38,351 nucleotides of DNA from Ignavibacteriales bacterium (lineage in GTDB: Bacteria; Bacteroidota; Ignavibacteria; Ignavibacteriales; SURF-24). Location of the stretch: positions 1 to 38,351 of the forward strand of contig JAPLFH010000014.1 of the NCBI GenBank assembly GCA_026390815.1, read 5' to 3'. The stretch's first letter is position 1; each line of letters starts with the position of its first letter. The notes under the pieces are model-generated. The model ran no database searches. It was not told the origin of the DNA and saw only the letters and a program-made list of their open reading frames with translations. Both the position numbers and the translations under genes were made by a program. This document shows, piece by piece, positions 28,561 to 38,351 of the stretch.

Positions 28561-28696
28561 TTACTAACTCATCTAACGCAAAGAATTGTAATTGTCATAT
28601 TGAGCAGAGCGAAATATCTCAAAATAGTTTGAAATCGAGGTGTCGAGATTCTTCACTCTATTCAGAATGACAATTTTGCGTAAGGTGACTTACTAA
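28561..28696. mobile_element. MITE (122 bp) with 7-bp target-site duplication
   Basis: Body 28568-28689 flanked by identical TTACTAA (28561-28567 and 28690-28696). Terminal inverted repeats: left CTCATCTAACGCAAA, right (reverse complement) GTCACCTTACGCAAA. Inside, ATTGTCAT...GAAATATCTC and its inverted partner GAGATTCTTC...ATGACAAT form a long imperfect hairpin. Leader copy B shows the same site uninterrupted (one TTAGTAA on the minus strand), confirming insertion. It encodes nothing; it would be mobilised by a full transposase elsewhere, possibly the element at the right edge, which ends in the same sequence. Confidence 0.85.
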
Positions 28697-28748: not shown

Positions 28749-29603
28749 CTATTTCTTATTTATCTTTTCTTGAGTTTTCATTGGTGGTAAAAAATTTTCA
28801 CCGGTAATTATACTTTTACCGGTTTTTTGTTCCAAAGCTCTTCTTGCATCCTTTGCAATTTTCCCACCTTTTTTTGCGGGAATTTTATTCTTCTCAAATC
28901 CTTCGGTATTTTCAATCTCTGCAATTTGCCTTGTAGAAAGTTCAGCCAAAGCAGTAAATATTAATTCAGCTTCGTTCATATGATCGCGTAAGTTTTGTGT
29001 TTTTAATCCTTTTAAAGTTTTGTGTTCTTTTACAGTTAGATCACTCCATTCTTTATGAATAATACTTGTAAGAATCGCAAAATCATCTTCCTTTTTAACT
29101 CCGTGATTATTCCAATAATCAGTAAGCTTATTGCGTGTTTCCTGCCCCATCATTCTTTGCTGGATCCACTTTTCACTTCTGCCTTGTTTCTGCCAGTATT
29201 CTCGGGAGCGGTTTAATGCTTTTTCAGGATTATTCATTTCCTCCATTCTTTCATAGCCAACTTTAGCAAGCCATAACTTAATTGGCTCTGCTTTTTTACT
29301 TGGTACAGATTGAACAAGGCGGAGAATAGTTTCTACATCAGCTACATCAGTATTTCGCATTTTTCCATCTTGTGCTATCATTTTCAACTGGTGACAATTT
29401 GTCACCACTTCACTTCCTTCGACTTTTAATCTTTCACTTAGCTTATTCCAGTATTTTCTCGCAACTTGAAAATCTCTTTGATCAGTAAGTGCGGCAACAA
29501 TATCAATAACAGAAAAATACCAAATTTCTTTATCCTCATCATAATGGCGGCGGATTTTGAAAGTCTCAAAAACTGCTAATGATTTTTCTTTATCTTTTTC
29601 CAA
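28749..29603 (-). CDS. Bro-N domain phage-antirepressor-like protein (copy 1)
   Basis: A 284-aa protein. Residues about 10-110 resemble a Bro-N DNA-binding domain (IWYFSVIDIVAALTDQRD, then YWNKLSERLK and the VADVETILRLVQSVPS stretch). A conserved KLWLAKVGYERMEE and a C-terminal block GGKIAKDARRALEQKTGK are shared with copy 2 (33688-34524). Members act as phage antirepressors or DinD-like damage-inducible factors. The start is TTG 29603, chosen because AGGAGG lies 5 bases upstream. It overlaps the end of a 23-codon rhuM-start remnant, and the leader repeat lies directly upstream. Confidence 0.85.
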   Translation of the reverse strand: MEKDKEKSLAVFETFKIRRHYDEDKEIWYFSVIDIVAALTDQRDFQVARKYWNKLSERLKVEGSEVVTNCHQLKMIAQDGKMRNTDVADVETILRLVQSVPSKKAEPIKLWLAKVGYERMEEMNNPEKALNRSREYWQKQGRSEKWIQQRMMGQETRNKLTDYWNNHGVKKEDDFAILTSIIHKEWSDLTVKEHKTLKGLKTQNLRDHMNEAELIFTALAELSTRQIAEIENTEGFEKNKIPAKKGGKIAKDARRALEQKTGKSIITGENFLPPMKTQEKINKK

Positions 29604-29664
29604 TGTAACCTCCTATCAGGCAACTAAAAAATATTATTTCTGATTTATTCTGATTCTCTTCCAT
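29593..29664 (-). pseudogene. rhuM 5' remnant (23 codons) before Bro-N copy 1
   Basis: ATG 29664 starts MEENQNKSEII, identical to the first 11 residues of the full RhuM (30788), then diverges (FFSCLIGGYIGKR, stop). It overlaps the TTG start of Bro-N copy 1 by 11 bases and contains that gene's AGGAGG, so it may still act as a translated leader for the antirepressor. Confidence 0.7.
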
Positions 29665-29740
29665 ATTTATAATTCTAATTGGTGGTTTTCGAAAGTTAAT
29701 TACTATGTATATAAGTAAAGGAATAGTATTCGGTTTCCAG
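29665..29740 (-). repeat. Leader repeat copy D (micro-ORF deleted)
   Basis: On the minus strand ACTTATATACATAGTAATTAAC, then CGAAAACCACCAATTAG and AATTATAAAT lead into ATG 29664. Compared with copies A and B, the micro-ORF (about 115 bp) is missing: ACCACCAAT joins directly to TTAGAATTATAAAT. Confidence 0.6.
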
Positions 29741-29765
29741 GAAATAACAAGTTAGTGGTTTATTA

Positions 29766-30788
29766 TTATTTATTCTTTTTTAATTTTTTAATAACAATAA
29801 GTTTTTTTACTGCCTTATCAAAATCACTTTCATAATTGCGATCTTGTACAATTATAAATTTATCATATTCTTCTTCAGCAAGTTTAACAGCAATTTCATG
29901 CCTTATTTTGCCGCCATCATCTAAAATATCGTATTCATTGAACTTTAGAAATGCATCCAGTTTATTAATCCAGTCGTGCATCTTCATTTGTATTTGACGG
30001 GAAGCCTGGTTTTCAGCATAATCCAGATACATTGATACAATACGTTCAAGTTCTTTAATTTCTTTTTCATTCAAATAATTTTTAGCAATAATAACGTCGC
30101 TTTTAAGAATCATGCTTTTAGGAGCATTTTTCCATGTTTGTAAACCCATTTGTGGTTTAGATGAATCGGCTCTTTCGGCAATCAACTGAGCTGCTGTTTT
30201 ACCTGTTACAGCCCAATGAAGTTTATTTTGAACTGTCTTAAAAAATTTATTGGTAATTTCAGCATCTTTGTTGTAATCGATGCTGCATTGCTGGTAGATA
30301 TCAGTAATCTTTTGATAGAACCTTCTCTCACTTGCACGAATTGCACGAATGCGTTCTAAAAGTTCGTCAAAATAATCTTTGCCGAAGCGTTTACCTTGTT
30401 TTAAGCGTTCATCGTCTAGAACAAAACCTTTAATTAGATATTCTCTTAACCGTTGCGTTGCCCAAATGCGGAATTTTGTACCATGAAGTGACTTTATTCG
30501 GTATCCTATTGAAATAATAACATCCAAATTATAATAAGCAGTATCATACTTTTTTCCGTCGGATGCAGTTGTTCGGAAATTCCGAACAACTGAATTTTCA
30601 TCCAGCTCCCCTTCTTCAAAAACGTTTTTTAGGTGTCCGCTAACTGTAGATTTTGCTTTTTGAAACAATTCACAAATTTGCGCTTGGGCTAGCCAAACAG
30701 TTTCATCTTCCAAACGGACTTCTATCTTTGTTTGTCCGTTTTCTGTCTGATATAATATTATTTCTGATTTATTCTGATTCTCTTCCAT
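29766..30788 (-). CDS. rhuM: RhuM-family protein (full length)
   Basis: A 340-aa protein of the Virulence_RhuM family, first described from Salmonella pathogenicity island 3 and common beside restriction and phage genes. A short N-terminal strand pair (EIILYQTENGQTKIEVRLED) is followed by a helix-turn-helix-like segment (WLAQAQICELFQKAKSTVSGHL), the family core YYNLDVIISIGYRIKSLHGTKF and RIWATQRLREYLIKGFVLDD, then helical C-terminal sequence. It probably binds DNA, but its biochemical role is not established. It is the only complete copy here; three truncated copies of its 5' end exist at 29664, 33358 and 34865. Leader copy A precedes it. Confidence 0.92.
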   Translation of the reverse strand: MEENQNKSEIILYQTENGQTKIEVRLEDETVWLAQAQICELFQKAKSTVSGHLKNVFEEGELDENSVVRNFRTTASDGKKYDTAYYNLDVIISIGYRIKSLHGTKFRIWATQRLREYLIKGFVLDDERLKQGKRFGKDYFDELLERIRAIRASERRFYQKITDIYQQCSIDYNKDAEITNKFFKTVQNKLHWAVTGKTAAQLIAERADSSKPQMGLQTWKNAPKSMILKSDVIIAKNYLNEKEIKELERIVSMYLDYAENQASRQIQMKMHDWINKLDAFLKFNEYDILDDGGKIRHEIAVKLAEEEYDKFIIVQDRNYESDFDKAVKKLIVIKKLKKNK

Positions 30789-30976
30789 ATTTATAATTCT
30801 AAATTGTTTTTATTTTTTAAGGAATTTACTTGCTAATAATTTTTTCTATTGTAACTAATTTACCTTCAAATTCTGTCACTTTGCTTTTAGCGATATGAAT
30901 GGGTTTGATGACTGCCATTGGTAGTTTCAGAAAGTTATTTGCTATTTAATAAGTCGAGGAGTGGTCCTCGACTGCC
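30789..30976 (-). repeat. Leader repeat copy A (upstream of full rhuM)
   Basis: On the minus strand: palindrome GTCGAGGA-CCAC-TCCTCGAC (30973-30954), CTTATTAAATAG, CTACCAATGG, the 30-codon micro-ORF, then GGAATTATAAAT-like sequence up to ATG 30788. It shares most bases with copy B (34866-35060), including long identical blocks such as TTTGAAGGTAAATTAGTTAC. The restriction-endonuclease remnant stops exactly where this copy begins. Confidence 0.75.
30826..30918 (-). CDS. Conserved micro-ORF in leader A (30 codons)
   Basis: Starts MAVIKPIHIA and ends FEGKLVTIEKIISK, stop. The second copy (leader B) keeps the same frame with mostly conservative differences (K12 region Ser/Asn, a synonymous GTG/GTA), suggesting it was translated in the past. 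The product is basic and short, unrecognised, and may be a leader peptide for rhuM, 37 bp downstream, or a remnant of a longer protein. Confidence 0.35.
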   Translation of the reverse strand: MAVIKPIHIAKSKVTEFEGKLVTIEKIISK

Positions 30977-31309
30977 AGGAAACTGGCAAAAGAAAAATCT
31001 TCTGTTCTCTCTTTCTTCTTTATTATTCCAATGCTCTAATAATCTTCTTGTTATTCCGGAAACACCTGGATAACCCTCTTCTCTCCACTTCTTTACTCTT
31101 GGTCTTATCTCATTTACCAGAGGTATTGGAACAAATACACCCGGATCATCAAAACCATGGGATTCTGATGCAATTACATATCCGGCAGGTCTCCTTTTAT
31201 CTTCAACCAATTCAAAGAATCTTGACTCCCTATCGTACCGCCAATATCTTTTTGGTTCTTCAAAGGGAGAATTTATTATAAGCTGGTTTATTTTGTCTGT
31301 TAGTTTCAT
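30935..31309 (-). pseudogene. N-terminal remnant of a BPTD_3080-like restriction endonuclease/helicase
   Basis: 124 codons. Residues 1-110 match, from memory, the start of the large BPTD_3080-family restriction endonucleases (NSPFEEPKRYWRYDRESRFF, RRPAGYVIAS, DDPGVFVPIPLVNEIRPRVK, GITRRLLEHW, NRRFFFCQ), which continue for about 900 more residues with DEAD/DEAH helicase motifs. Here the sequence breaks after FFFCQ into leader-repeat DNA read as FPGSRGPLLDLLNSK. No helicase or nuclease motif remains, so it should be inactive. A second, 16-codon remnant of the same start is at 32864. Confidence 0.8.
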
Positions 31310-31441
31310 TTAGGTTTATTTTGTAATGATGCGATTATGATGCAATTGAAATCGCAAGTGACAATCTCAATCGCTGAGTAATCGCCAAGTAAAAATTTCA
31401 ATCGAAACAATTAATTTTATCCTTATTTCTTTTCCAGCCAA

Positions 31442-32791
31442 TTATCGGTCGATTCGGTCGATTATTGGTCGATTACTTGCAATAATATATTTTGTACCTC
31501 GTCCTTTTGTACCATAACTAGTTATATATTTTTTTTCAACCAGTAATTGTAATTCTTCAACTGCAGTGGTTTTTCCAACATTATTTATCTTTCTATAAAT
31601 AGAATTTGTTATTTCACCATTTTCTTTTATAAATAAAATAGCTTTGATTTGCCTATCATTAAGCCCATTCTTTTTTAATTCTTCTTCGGAAATCAAATCC
31701 ATAAAAACAGTAACAAGAAATCCACCATCAACTTCTTTCATCTCGGGTTCCGGCAGTTCAGCTTCATTACATGCATTTATTATTTTTAGTGTTCCTCTTC
31801 CCCATGCATCTATATAGCCGCCTTTAAAACAAACATCTGCAATAATAGGATTTCGGGGACGTGAGGGATGCTGCCGCTTTAATGCCTCAAATGATAATCC
31901 CTCCGGTAATGTTCCTTTGTTCCAGAAACTGATCTTATCATCATATACGCGTAATTGAATTGTTGAACCGGAATAGTTTTTATGAACCAGCGCATTAAGC
32001 AGCATTTCTCGAAGTGCAGCTACAGGATATTCTCCTTTTTCAATTCTCTGTAGTCCCTCAAAGCCAATAGCCCTGGTTAAGAATTTTCTATCTAATTGTA
32101 ATGGAACTTCTTTAAGCAGATGAAGCAGGTTTCCTTCTTCCACTTCCTGGAATTTCAGTTCGTCATCAGATTTTCCAAAGCGGCCAATTTTAACCGAGAT
32201 ATTTGGATAAAACTTTCCGGGATCTTTTCCAAAAAGAATAATAGCTGCACGCTTTAGCTTTGTGCCTTCGGCAAGCCTTAACTTCTCCAGCAGTTCAGGT
32301 ATATTCAGATCATCTGAAGAAGGAAGCCTGCCAGCTCTTCCTGCATCAGATAAATATTTTTTAATGCTGTTTTCATCAATATCACTAAATGCAGCTCTAT
32401 CTTCAATAACATCATCCCATGTTTTACCGGATTTTTTTAAAAGAAAATCGGTAAGAGAATTTCCTGTTAGCTCTTTTGTTGTACTTCCTGATCTTATGTA
32501 GTATCGTCCTCTTAATGAAATAGCAACCGAATATGGCTGAACATCTATTTCAATAAAGCATTTAGAATTTTCTTTGATGAGGTTTACTTCGGCAGTAATC
32601 CCAAGCAAGTTTTTGATCTTATTTGGCAGCTCTTCCATCAATCTATTATCATCAGCAACATTAATACAATTACCATTGTTATCTTTACCGATAAAAAGTT
32701 TTCCACCTTTTGAATTGGCAAATGCACAAATGGTTTTTAAGTTGTCATCGTGCCAGCTTGTTTTGTATTCTATGTTCTGTTGTTCAGGCAT
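31442..32791 (-). CDS. AlbA_2/Schlafen-type ATP-binding protein with winged-helix tail
   Basis: A 449-aa predicted regulator or defence protein of the RecG-like COG2865 group. Residues 1-125 are an AlbA_2/Schlafen domain (EYKTSWHDDNLKTICAFANS, GGKLFIGKDNNG, GRYYIRSGSTTKEL). Residues about 245-365 are a GHKL-type ATPase module (LREMLLNALVHKNY, GGYIDAWGRGTLKI). A C-terminal winged helix follows (LNDRQIKAILFIKENGEITN...VGKTTAVEELQLL). Such genes often accompany restriction systems. ATG 32791 lies 1 bp after the stop of a 23-codon restriction-enzyme start remnant, implying translation from the same leader. The end of the gene carries a short GGTCGATT repeat. Confidence 0.88.
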   Translation of the reverse strand: MPEQQNIEYKTSWHDDNLKTICAFANSKGGKLFIGKDNNGNCINVADDNRLMEELPNKIKNLLGITAEVNLIKENSKCFIEIDVQPYSVAISLRGRYYIRSGSTTKELTGNSLTDFLLKKSGKTWDDVIEDRAAFSDIDENSIKKYLSDAGRAGRLPSSDDLNIPELLEKLRLAEGTKLKRAAIILFGKDPGKFYPNISVKIGRFGKSDDELKFQEVEEGNLLHLLKEVPLQLDRKFLTRAIGFEGLQRIEKGEYPVAALREMLLNALVHKNYSGSTIQLRVYDDKISFWNKGTLPEGLSFEALKRQHPSRPRNPIIADVCFKGGYIDAWGRGTLKIINACNEAELPEPEMKEVDGGFLVTVFMDLISEEELKKNGLNDRQIKAILFIKENGEITNSIYRKINNVGKTTAVEELQLLVEKKYITSYGTKGRGTKYIIASNRPIIDRIDR

Positions 32792-32792
32792 A

Positions 32793-32864
32793 TTAACTAT
32801 GTTTCACTTCTACTGTAAATGGAGAATTGATTATTAGCTGGTTTAGTTTGTCGGTGAATTTCAT
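32793..32864 (-). pseudogene. Second restriction-endonuclease start remnant (16 homologous codons)
   Basis: ATG 32864 encodes MKFTDKLNQLIINSPF, 13 of 16 residues the same as the remnant at 31309, followed by TVEVKHS and a stop, one base before the AlbA_2 gene start. So the AlbA_2 gene is flanked on both sides by the 5' end of the same restriction gene. Confidence 0.75.
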
Positions 32865-32884
32865 TTTCATTAATTGAATATGTC

Positions 32885-33358
32885 TCATTTTGTATATCCC
32901 CATTCTGATTCTAATCTTTTTATTGAATAGTCAGAAAGGATTAAAAGTGCTCTCAAATTTGCATCCTCATATTGCAATTGTTGTATACAACAAAAAAATA
33001 GGCCAATGCAATAATGAAAGCTTTTAGGTTCAATCAATAAATCACAAGCTAAATATCGAATATATTTTGTTATAGAAAAACATCTATTTATAGGAATGTT
33101 ATAATCGAGGGTTTCATCAAGTCTAAATTCAGATTCAGAATATGGGCTTCTCCTTATTTTTTTATAAATATCCTCCATTATATAATCAAATGGTAAACAA
33201 CTAGACCATATTGATGTTTCAAGCAAGGCATAATCTAATGAAGAATGAGCTATACTTGAATTACCCCAATCAATAAAATGTGCAACTTTTCCTGAATCAA
33301 TTTGAATGTTTTCTGTCTGATATAATATTATTTCTGATTTATTCTGGTTCGTTTCCAT
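32885..33358 (-). pseudogene. Chimeric ORF: RhuM N-terminus fused to an unrelated C-terminal half
   Basis: 157 codons from ATG 33358 (an in-frame ATG at 33364 exists, but the homologous starts begin METNQNKSE/MEENQNKSE). Residues 1-17 (METNQNKSEIILYQTEN) are RhuM; the rest is different: SGKVAHFIDWGNSSIAHSSLDYALLE resembles the IDxG region of kinase-fold phosphotransferase-like domains, with helical sequence to the end. The preceding N-lobe and the HGD...N catalytic segment that such a domain needs are absent, so this is the 3' half of another gene joined in frame to a rhuM start. Whether it is expressed is unknown. Confidence 0.65.
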
Positions 33359-33400
33359 ATTCATAATTTCAAAATGTTTTTATTTCTTAAGGAATTTGCT
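33300..33400 (-). repeat. Leader repeat copy C (rhuM start without micro-ORF)
   Basis: The rhuM start block (CAGAATAAATCAGAAATAAT-type sequence on minus) and the first 35 bases upstream, including AAGAAATAAAAACATTTTG and TTAAGAAATAAAAAC-like sequence, resemble copy A, then similarity fades at about 33400. The micro-ORF is missing. Confidence 0.5.
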
Positions 33401-33449
33401 TGAATATAATATTTTCTTTTTTCAGTCTTTCAGCGCTTATCCTGTTTGC

Positions 33450-33578
33450 TTCAGTAGGCTGTTGCAATAAGCCAAATTATATCGTGTTGGTCGGAGTCGA
33501 ACTACGAAAATAACGCAAAATCATCCCTCGACTTCGCTCGGGATGAGTGATTAACAAGTTATGCAACAGCCTGTTCAG
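33450..33578. mobile_element. Second MITE-like element (119 bp) with 5-bp flanking repeat
   Basis: Body 33455-33573 flanked by TTCAG on both sides (33450-33454, 33574-33578). Terminal inverted repeats: TAGGCTGTTGCAATAA and, on the other strand, CAGGCTGTTGCATAAC. The interior carries ATCCCTCGACTTCGCTCGGGAT, a form of the dispersed repeat seen at 123-243. Different TIR and target length from the 28.6-kb MITE, so a separate family. Confidence 0.7.
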
Positions 33579-33687
33579 GCAAGCGGAAATCCAAAAAACT
33601 TTATTAATACAATATATTCCCACTCCTGTCACCGCAGGCAGGTTTGTGGGAAAGACAACTGGACAATATTAGTTTATTAGACCGGAC

Positions 33688-34524
33688 TCATTTAGTTAAT
33701 CTTCTTTTTTTATTCTCCTGAAGTGCCAGATAATTTTCTTTGGTTACAACTTTCTTTCCTGTTTCTTTTTCTAATGCTTCGCGTGCATCTCCGGCTATTT
33801 TACCTCCTTTTTTTGCAGTCGCCTTGTTTTCCGGAAATCCTTGTGAGTTTTGCTTTCTTGCAATTTCTGTTGTTGATGCTTCACCAAGCATACTAAAAAT
33901 CAATTCAAGATCAGTCATATGATCTCTTAAATTCTCATTTCTTTTTTGTAAACCTTTGTAGTTTTTGTACTCATAAGGCGTTAAACCAAATGTTGCTTTG
34001 CTTATTTCAGAAGTTAAAATAGAAAATTCCAATTGCTCTTTTATTCCACGTTTTTTCCATTCATCGGTAAGTTCATCTCGAACAGCAATTCCACGCACTC
34101 TTTTTTCTATCCATGTATCGCTGTACCCTTTAGCTTTATATATTTCTCTCACACGTTGAGATGCAAGTTCAGGATTTTCAATTTCTTCTAATCTCTCATA
34201 ACCAACTTTTGCAAGCCATCTTTTGAACGGTTCTGCTTTGGGTGAAGGAATAGATTGAATAATTCTGAATAAACCTTCTACATCCGAACAATCAGATTCA
34301 TAATATTTACCATCTGATGATTCTAATTTCAGTTGTCGACAAATTGTCGACAAGTCAATCCCTTGTTCCTTTTCCCTTTTTTTTAACCGATACCAGTAGT
34401 CTCTTGGTTTAATACTATCTGCTAATACCTCTACAACATCTACTACGGAAAAATACCATATCTGTTCTTCTTCATTCCAGACCGAACGAATTTTCTTTGA
34501 TTCAAATAATTTTATTGCGCTCAT
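33688..34524 (-). CDS. Bro-N domain phage-antirepressor-like protein (copy 2)
   Basis: A 278-aa paralogue of the protein at 28749-29603, aligning end to end: IWYFSVVDVVEVLADS, DVEGLFRIIQSIPSPKAEPF, RWLAKVGYERLEEIENPELA, LRDHMTDLELIFSMLGEAST, and GGKIAGDAREALEKETGKKV. Predicted antirepressor/DinD-like role as for copy 1. ATG 34524 overlaps the TGA of the truncated rhuM (ATGA), so translation is probably coupled. MITE-like DNA lies downstream at 33450-33578. Confidence 0.87.
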   Translation of the reverse strand: MSAIKLFESKKIRSVWNEEEQIWYFSVVDVVEVLADSIKPRDYWYRLKKREKEQGIDLSTICRQLKLESSDGKYYESDCSDVEGLFRIIQSIPSPKAEPFKRWLAKVGYERLEEIENPELASQRVREIYKAKGYSDTWIEKRVRGIAVRDELTDEWKKRGIKEQLEFSILTSEISKATFGLTPYEYKNYKGLQKRNENLRDHMTDLELIFSMLGEASTTEIARKQNSQGFPENKATAKKGGKIAGDAREALEKETGKKVVTKENYLALQENKKRRLTK

Positions 34525-34865
34525 GTTTCCCTTAAAATGTTCTGATACGACTTAAATGAACTTCGATTTTCAGGTTCTGAAATTATAACATCAAGATTAT
34601 AATAATCTATAACTCGCGAAACTGAACGATCTTTTTCAATTTGAACTGTTCGGAAATTCCGAACAGTTGATTCTTTAGGAAGCTCTCCTTCTTCAAAGAT
34701 ATTTTTAATATGTTCGCTTATTGTTGATTTTGCTTTTTGAAACAATTCTGCTAACTGGTTCAGCGTTAGCCAGACAGTTTCATCTTCCAAACGAACTTCA
34801 ATCTTTGTTTGCCCGTCTTCTGTCTGATATAGTATTAATTCTGATTTATTCTGATTCTCTTCCAT
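34521..34865 (-). pseudogene. rhuM: Truncated rhuM (N-terminal 114 codons), coupled to Bro-N copy 2
   Basis: Residues 1-96 are colinear with full-length RhuM (MEENQNKSELILYQTEDGQ, then WLTLNQLAELFQKAKSTISE and the YYNLDVIIS end), after which the sequence changes to EPENRSSFKSYQNILRET and stops. About two thirds of the protein is missing. The stop overlaps the ATG of Bro-N copy 2 by 4 bases. The retained helix-turn-helix half could still bind DNA, so a functional short form cannot be ruled out. Confidence 0.75.
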
Positions 34866-36090: not shown

Positions 36091-37530
36091 TTAATACTTA
36101 GGTGATAAAGTTGTTGAGTCAGTAAAAATAATTAGCCTCTTACAAGCTCTAGTAAGTGCAACATATAAATTTTTAGGGCATTTAAATTTTTGCGCATTTA
36201 AAATAGCGACTGTATCAAACTCTAGACCTTTTGTTAACAATGTAGTACCTATACATTTACCATATATTTTTCTTCCAATTCTTCGAGTTGTATTTCGTAA
36301 TAATTTCATCGCTTCAAATACACATATGTTTTTTGTTTCTGCAATTTCTAACGATTCAGTAAGAGAATTAAATAATTCCTTACGGAAACATTTGATACCT
36401 GCCAATTTTTTTATTTCATTTAAAGTAACTGATAACACATGGAAATTAAAATTTATTTTAAGTTGTTCAAATAGATCTTTAACTGGTACAATAGCTATTT
36501 GATCTTCTTTCTTTTTTTTCCTTATTAATCCTTTTTTATTAAACCAAGTATTGGTGCCTGAAAAAAATTCTGATAAAATATCTTTAATGTTTTGTTCAAT
36601 ATTATTTTGTTTCAAGTCGTCCATTTTTTTAGCAATTTTATAAAAATCTTTATCATCAATTGCTTCAAGCAAAATAAAACAGTTATTAAAACTATTATTA
36701 ATATTTACCCTGCTTTTAATATTACTATTTTCTGGATGAATTAATAAAACACTTTTTTCCTTTAATAATCCCCATACCTTTTTATTGGAGTTTTTTTTAT
36801 TATCATAAATATCTTCTTCTTCACATGGCACTATTTCTATAGAAGATAAATAATCACCTAAATTAATACGCTCTTTTTTTTCTATTTTATCTCTGATATC
36901 TTTTAAGGAATTTCCTAAGGCTTCATTATTTCCTTCCTTTTTCCAGCGATATGGTACCTCAAGTTTAAAAATATTATTAATAAAATCTCCCATTTCATCA
37001 GGGTTACTAGTATCCACAGTATCGTTAAACTTAAAAATCCCTTGAAGATAATCCCCAACGATATGTGTTTGTAAAATATCAGATAAGGCTAAAATAAATT
37101 CGTGTTGTTTTTTTGTGCAGTCTTGATATTCGTCAACAAAAAGACCTGAATAAGTTAATTTAATAATATCGGCAATTGGTTTTATATTAACTAACTCTGC
37201 TGCCTTCTCATATAAGATTGTATAATATAGTTTATTGTTATCTTGTTCAGGAATATCATTGCCACAATAAAAAGCATTTACATATTTTTGTGCATAGCTA
37301 GCAATAGTTTCAACATTATATTTCCTACTCGAAATATTAATTTTTTTAATTTTCTCTTTAATTGAAGCAACGCCTGCATGCGTATGTGTTAGTATTAATT
37401 GTTTACCAATAGTATAATTATCATTAAGACACTCAGCTATTGTATGTGTTTTTCCATAACCTGCTGGAGCAATTAGAAAACTTTTTGGGTTCGAAACAAA
37501 TCCTTTATAATCAAATTGATTATCATCCAT
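36091..37530 (-). CDS. gajB: UvrD-family helicase, GajB-like (Gabija defence)
   Basis: A 479-aa superfamily 1 helicase. Motif I is APAGYGKTHT (K27), motif II GLFVDEYQDC, motif III GDYLQGIFKF, motif V TKGLEFDTVAIL, motif VI YVALTRACKRLI. The small size, without UvrD accessory domains, fits GajB, which works with the nuclease GajA in the Gabija antiphage system. The frame could start at ATG 37554, but the ATG at 37530 gives the typical overlap ATGGATGA with the upstream gajA stop, so 37530 is chosen. The helicase itself looks intact; its partner is not. Confidence 0.87.
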   Translation of the reverse strand: MDDNQFDYKGFVSNPKSFLIAPAGYGKTHTIAECLNDNYTIGKQLILTHTHAGVASIKEKIKKINISSRKYNVETIASYAQKYVNAFYCGNDIPEQDNNKLYYTILYEKAAELVNIKPIADIIKLTYSGLFVDEYQDCTKKQHEFILALSDILQTHIVGDYLQGIFKFNDTVDTSNPDEMGDFINNIFKLEVPYRWKKEGNNEALGNSLKDIRDKIEKKERINLGDYLSSIEIVPCEEEDIYDNKKNSNKKVWGLLKEKSVLLIHPENSNIKSRVNINNSFNNCFILLEAIDDKDFYKIAKKMDDLKQNNIEQNIKDILSEFFSGTNTWFNKKGLIRKKKKEDQIAIVPVKDLFEQLKINFNFHVLSVTLNEIKKLAGIKCFRKELFNSLTESLEIAETKNICVFEAMKLLRNTTRRIGRKIYGKCIGTTLLTKGLEFDTVAILNAQKFKCPKNLYVALTRACKRLIIFTDSTTLSPKY

Positions 37531-38218
37531 TATCAATCCAATTTGATAATTCATTCAGTTTTTGTTTTAACTCATTATCTTCTAGTTCTGAATAATGATC
37601 AAAAATTAAGTCTCCAAGGGCTTCCCCCTTTGTAATATTTTTATACCAGCCATTTTCACCAGAAGCAATTTCACCTATTTTATCTCTTAAATATTCTTCA
37701 TTATCCTTTTCGTCAAAACAATTATTTGAAAAGCACTCTTTACAAGTATGTGAATCATATTTATTGCATACTGATTTCCATAAATCTTTTGTAGAAGTAT
37801 TCTTTCTTAATCTAGCTGCTAATTCAACACTTTCTTTAATCACTTTTATAGGTAAGTATTTATAAATAGCTTTTTCCAAGCAAAGTTTATTACTCCAATC
37901 TATTATCTTTATATCTTGTAATCTTATGCTTTCCTTTTGTTTATTTATTCCATCATTATCAGAATCACAGAATAAACAAACTTGATACTTTGATTTATTA
38001 TAGCCTTCGCAATATGATATTAAATTTGAACCTGTTCCATCCGCAAATGCTACACCCAAATATGTTGCGCTTTTTTTACCATTTTTTAACCTAAAATTAT
38101 TTATTGCTCTACAAATACCTACTTCTGTTGCGCCTTCACACACAATTACTTTTTGAGCAAAGAAAGCTACTGGATTATTTCTTAGACTTCCTTGTAATTC
38201 TGCATTGAATATTATTAA
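37523..38218 (-). pseudogene. gajA: Truncated gajA: OLD-family TOPRIM domain only
   Basis: The open frame reads from the break near 38218 to TGA at 37523; the first possible start is GTG 38143 but coding sequence continues upstream (FNAELQGSLRNNP, VAFFAQKVIVCEGATEVG). CEGATEV is the TOPRIM glutamate motif and FCDSDNDG the DxD motif. The N-terminal ATPase half (Walker A/B) is missing within this window. At 38218 the sequence changes to a mobile-element end, with a stop in frame at 38225. So the protein should lack the ATPase that gates the GajA nuclease. The missing half may lie beyond the window on the far side of the insertion. Confidence 0.82.
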
Positions 38219-38351
38219 CTCACCTTACGCAACCCGATGCGTATAGTTATATTTTTTAGAATTTCATAGCGAAAGAAACTTTGAGATTTTCCAGTTGATT
38301 AAAAGCTGCACGATTTGCAGTAAGATACAATTTAGCTCGCAATGCTGTTGG
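38219..38351 (-). mobile_element. Right end of a probable insertion sequence in gajA
   Basis: From 38219 inward the plus strand reads CTCACCTTACGCAACCC, matching the MITE ends at 28.6 kb (13 bases identical to TCACCTTACGCAA). The flanking TTATTAA at 38212-38218 has the same TTANTAA form as the MITE target duplication. The element continues past the window edge. A CGCA-ACCCGA-TGCG hairpin lies just inside the end. Confidence 0.6.
38256..38351 (-). CDS. Partial CDS: C-terminal 31 residues, possibly the element's transposase
   Basis: Open to the window edge, ending with TAA at 38258-38256. The visible protein is PTALRAKLYLTANRAAF then NQLENLKVSFAMKF. It stops 24 bp from the element end, where a transposase gene usually ends, but I recognise no transposase signature in this tail. 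The assignment rests on position only. Confidence 0.4.
   Translation of the reverse strand, partial: PTALRAKLYLTANRAAFNQLENLKVSFAMKF

What the first reader, a model, noticed from the sequence alone, without database searches (positions are those of the whole stretch)
37523..38351. Gabija system with gajA cut by a mobile element
gajB looks complete, but gajA retains only the TOPRIM half, and the break at 38218/38219 coincides with a terminal repeat also found on the 28.6-kb MITE, beside a TTATTAA candidate target. The pair is therefore likely inactive, unless the ATPase half is expressed separately on the other side of the insertion.
Basis: partly seen in the sequence, partly recalled or inferred. 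Interest (0 to 1): 0.6.

Follow-up and report, generated by a model that had tools for sequence, protein, structure and literature searches.

The report
Phage-defence gene cut by insertion sequence
A common bacterial anti-phage system (Gabija) has had its nuclease gene split in two by a multi-copy "jumping" insertion sequence, almost certainly switching it off; this is an ordinary case of gene disruption and not a new kind of system.

Summary
The finding is confirmed and mostly well interpreted. Window 37523-38218 (-) is the TOPRIM half of a Gabija GajA (about residues 341-570), followed by a complete gajB. Homology to GajA runs up to a 7-bp TTATTAA (38212-38218) and stops at 38218/38219. From there to the contig end is the right end of a 1,188-bp insertion sequence with an IS701-type (NCBIfam NF049921) DDE transposase. 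The genome has 13 right and 12 left ends of it; 23 of these 25 sit at contig ends, so the repeat broke the assembly here. In relatives GajA runs on for more than 300 residues across this point (76 of 81). The TSD is 7 bp of the TTANTAA type, seen at other insertions of the IS whose two flanks rejoin into one reading frame. The GajA ATPase half is nowhere in the assembly: it lies on an unbinned contig or was lost by IS recombination. A GajA reduced to its TOPRIM half is published as inactive, so the system is probably dead. The 28.6-kb MITE has related ends and the same TSD type but is a different element.

The parts
36091..37530 (-). gajB, complete (479 aa; an upstream in-frame ATG at 37554 gives 487 aa)
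   Evidence: PADLOC GajB 6-469/471, E 6.6e-126; about 50% identical over residues 6-477 to GajB of relatives; 8-bp overlap with gajA as in G050
37523..38218 (-). gajA 3' part: TOPRIM half (229 codons plus the L-I codons inside the TSD); stop codon at 37523-37525
   Evidence: PADLOC GajA 349-568/570; OLD-like_TOPRIM; all 22 columns conserved in at least 90% of 75 relatives are kept, including E26 and D83/D85; homology reaches the L-I residues coded by the TSD
38212..38218 (.). TTATTAA, target-site duplication copy of the insertion
   Evidence: TTANTAA-type 7-bp duplications at other copies of this IS and at MITEs
38219..38351 (-). right end of the insertion sequence, with the last 31 codons of its transposase (38259-38351); cut by the contig end
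   Evidence: 12 further copies of this end in the genome; transposase C-terminus 100% identical to the C18 copy
28568..28689 (.). 122-bp MITE with ends related to the IS, flanked by TTACTAA at 28561-28567 and 28690-28696; a separate insertion

Best explanation
A canonical two-gene Gabija operon (gajA-gajB) was hit by a multi-copy 1.19-kb IS701-type insertion sequence. It inserted into a TTATTAA/TTAATAA target at about codon 341 of gajA, between the ATPase and TOPRIM domains, and duplicated 7 bp. The transposase reads in the same direction as gajA, towards gajB. The TOPRIM half and gajB remain intact but lack the ATPase/oligomerization half, and the TOPRIM half has no suitable start codon of its own. 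The system is therefore most likely inactive, and recently so, because the remnant is undecayed. Shown: GajA and GajB identity, the exact IS boundary, the element and its transposase, the 7-bp TSD rule, and absence of the ATPase half from the assembly. Inferred: that an IS insertion cut gajA at this site (only one of the two junctions is seen), and loss of function. Whether the ATPase half still lies beyond the IS is left open (see first rival, which is a variant of this explanation).
For: Profiles. Repeat ends at contig ends. Complete IS and transposase NF049921 E 4.5e-97. TSD families and restored frames at other sites (C27L+C30R, C31L+C27R, C18L+C13R). GajA continuous in 76 of 81 relatives; junction alignment through the TSD codons. 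Undecayed remnant, 22/22 conserved columns. Isolated BcGajA TOPRIM (348-578) has no endonuclease activity: PMC8136825. GajA tetramer and main GajA-GajB contacts lie in the ATPase half: PMC10781630.
Against: The partner left end with the ATPase half was not found, so the second TSD copy at this site is unseen. None of the five left ends with the right TSD encodes GajA. Reported DRs for the IS701 family are 4 bp (PMC2266710), whereas this element gives 7.
Confidence: 0.9

Rival explanations
1. Variant of the best explanation: the ATPase half is no longer on the other side. Recombination between two IS copies, or an IS-adjacent deletion, removed it, and C14 is now joined through the IS to an unrelated locus such as C5, C35 or C37.
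For: No ATPase half in a 99.96%-complete assembly. Some IS ends have no TSD partner (C56 and C18 right ends), and the assembled C18 copy has different 7-bp sequences on its two sides.
Against: There is at least one more right end than left ends (13 against 12), so a left-end contig is missing from the bin and could carry the ATPase half.
Confidence: 0.4
2. The two halves of GajA are expressed separately and still form a working nuclease.
For: The cut falls at the boundary between the ATPase and TOPRIM domains; both remaining parts are undecayed.
Against: The first in-frame start in the remnant (GTG, 38143) lies inside the conserved CEGATE motif. Predicted promoters are no more than chance and none reads out of the IS. 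The isolated TOPRIM half of BcGajA is inactive. No separate ATPase half in the genome.
Confidence: 0.04
3. Pure assembly artefact: the IS end was wrongly joined to an intact gajA.
For: Metagenome-type assembly with contigs ending in the repeat; C18 may hold a misjoin.
Against: The junction has the exact IS boundary and the 7-bp TSD motif seen at the other insertions, and no intact gajA or ATPase half exists elsewhere in the assembly.
Confidence: 0.03

Closest known systems
Gabija (GajA + GajB), Bacillus cereus VD045 type
   Same: Gene order gajA-gajB, OLD-type TOPRIM with the conserved E and DxD, UvrD-like GajB
   Different: GajA lacks the N-terminal ATPase/dimerization half (about 341 residues), cut by an IS
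IS701-family insertion sequences (NCBIfam NF049921)
   Same: About 1.2 kb, single DDE transposase of 361 aa, short inverted ends
   Different: 7-bp TTANTAA-type target duplications, against 4 bp tabulated for IS701 in PMC2266710
IS-related MITEs (here the 122-bp element at 28568-28689)
   Same: Similar ends and 7-bp TTANTAA-type duplications
   Different: No coding capacity; 3 of the 18 terminal bases differ; not the element that cut gajA

Membership tests
Gabija | GajA with OLD-type TOPRIM domain, conserved E and DxD | tested here: met
Gabija | GajA with N-terminal ATPase domain joined to the TOPRIM | tested here: not met
   cut at 38218/38219; ATPase half absent from the assembly. Filed as a broken Gabija locus, not a working one.
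Gabija | Adjacent UvrD-like helicase GajB, complete | tested here: met
Gabija | Phage protection | not testable with these tools
   needs experiment
IS701-family insertion sequence | Transposase of the family | tested here: met
   NF049921, 325 bits against a cut-off of 250, on the C18 copy; C14 shows its last 31 codons
IS701-family insertion sequence | Inverted terminal repeats and several dispersed copies | tested here: met
   CTCACCTTACGCAA at both ends; 13 right and 12 left ends
IS701-family insertion sequence | 4-bp direct repeats (PMC2266710) | tested here: not met
   7-bp duplications match between left and right ends and at MITEs; the name here rests on the transposase model alone, so 'IS701-type' is meant, not strict membership
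IS701-family insertion sequence | Second end and TSD copy at this very site | tested here: inconclusive
   contig ends inside the IS; partner not identified

The most novel reading that the evidence does not exclude
The IS acts as a reversible switch or domain splitter: precise excision restores gajA in part of the population, or the two GajA halves are made separately and assemble with GajB.
Probability: 0.05. Interest if true: 0.45.

Novelty: new member of a known kind. Interest (0 to 1): 0.13.

Why it matters
It is a clean example of a defence system recently disabled by an active IS. A profile-based defence finder could count this locus as Gabija although it is broken. It also shows how an IS expansion fragments an assembly exactly at the genes it disrupts. 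It opens no new question about Gabija itself.

Tried and rejected
Direct search for the ATPase half by the PADLOC profile, by a relative's protein and by a 12-sequence profile found only weak Walker-type matches of at most 26 bits in the own genome, while the last scored 598 bits in relative G050; G050's own sequence is a row of that profile, so that control shows the search works but overstates its reach. Single-protein scans for close relatives in genome contigs and viral contigs found nothing; the IS end was not found in viral contigs. phmmer of the TOPRIM half against PDB sequences found nothing at E 0.001, so family assignment rests on profiles. A natural start of gajA at this point was rejected. 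An outward promoter from the IS: no support. Literature searches for a Gabija locus cut by an IS and for a 7-bp TSD in IS701 gave no direct precedent in the held library.

Full report
Observation. The window is a complete contig (G000:C14, 38,351 bases) of a 59-contig, 4.52-Mb genome, so the sequence ends inside the feature. On the minus strand, 37523-38218 encodes the C-terminal part of GajA: PADLOC GajA profile positions 349-568 of 570 at E 5.7e-52 and Pfam OLD-like_TOPRIM. gajB follows: PADLOC GajB 6-469 of 471 at E 6.6e-126, about 50% identical to GajB of relatives over residues 6-477 of 479. The start at 37530 gives the same 8-bp overlap with gajA as in the related genome G050.

The break. 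Bases 38219-38351 are one end of a dispersed repeat. The genome carries 13 copies of this right end (CTCACCTTACGCAACCCGATGCG...) and 12 copies of a left end (CTCACCTTACGCAAAG...), nearly all lying within about 150 bases of a contig end. That is what a short-read assembler does at an unresolved repeat (inference). One complete copy lies on C18 (1,188 bp) with a 361-aa transposase, NCBIfam NF049921 IS701 family at 325 bits against a cut-off of 250. The last 31 codons of that transposase are at 38259-38351 in the window, 100% identical. The IS end in the window is therefore certain.

Target duplication. The seven bases before each IS end are TTANTAA-like. Left and right ends fall into matching classes, including unusual ones: TTAAATA (C38 left with C35 right) and TTACTAA (C18 left with C13 right). 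At three sites, joining the flanks with one TSD copy gives one open frame across the junction: C27L+C30R (410 codons), C31L+C27R (539 codons) and C18L+C13R (852 codons). Other combinations within one TSD class also stay open, so the frame alone does not prove a pair; the chosen pairs were preferred because the protein sequence continues sensibly across the junction (read by eye). This supports the rule independently of gajA. Two MITEs, including the one in the window at 28568-28689, are flanked by identical 7-bp repeats TTACTAA and TTGATAA.

gajA is cut, not naturally short. Of 81 loci encoding relatives, 76 extend at least 300 residues upstream of the point of the cut; two of the other five run off their contig. 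The alignment of relatives continues through the residues L-I coded by the TSD itself. The remnant keeps all 22 positions that are conserved in at least 90% of 75 relatives, so the insertion looks recent.

The missing half. Neither the PADLOC GajA profile, nor the ATPase half of the G050 GajA, nor a 12-sequence profile of the ATPase half finds it in the assembly. The last scores 598 bits in G050 (whose sequence is in the profile) against 17.5 bits for the best own-genome match. Five left ends carry the fitting duplication TTAATAA (C5, C27, C31, C35, C37). C27 and C31 are best paired with C30 and C27, and the flanks of C5, C35 and C37 do not encode GajA. There is one more right end than left ends, so at least one left-end contig is missing. 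The ATPase half therefore lies on a contig that was not binned, or it was removed by recombination between IS copies, for which the unmatched ends of C18 and C56 give some support.

Function. GajA needs its ATPase half: the isolated TOPRIM part of B. cereus GajA (residues 348-578), nearly the same fragment as here, had no endonuclease activity (PMC8136825). The tetramer interfaces and the main GajA-GajB contacts lie in the ATPase half (PMC10781630). In the remnant the first start codon (GTG 38143) is inside the catalytic CEGATE motif, and promoter-like sites are at chance level with none reading out of the IS. The locus is most likely inactive.

Comparison and novelty. This is a broken member of a known defence system and one more copy of a known kind of IS. 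The only departure is the 7-bp TTANTAA-type duplication, against 4 bp tabulated for IS701 elements in PMC2266710; subgroups described since then were not compared. Interest is low.

Noticed in passing
G000:C18:70154-71341 (L041): The only fully assembled IS copy has different 7-bp sequences on its sides (TTACTAA / TGATTAA); its left flank fits, by TSD and by an 852-codon joined frame, the right end on C13. Either recombination between IS copies or a misjoin.
   Followed up: partly
G000 C27/C30, C31/C27, C13/C18 contig ends: The same IS also cuts other genes, including an HI0933-like flavoprotein, a secretion-tail protein and a PAS-type protein (all three named by eye, not by a profile search): a recent IS expansion.
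   Followed up: partly
28749-34865: Beside the Gabija locus lie two BRO-N genes (PADLOC PDC-S13), a full RhuM gene (PDC-S05), a RhuM gene cut at 114 aa (34521-34865), a short ORF 32885-33364 that begins with RhuM-like residues, and a Schlafen AlbA_2 gene: a partly decayed candidate defence island.
   Followed up: partly
28568-28689 and L043:1504-1613: MITEs of about 110-122 bp with IS-like ends and 7-bp duplications, possibly moved by this IS or a relative.
   Followed up: partly
genome-wide IS ends: The IS701-type element makes 7-bp TTANTAA-type duplications, unlike the 4 bp tabulated for the family.
   Followed up: partly
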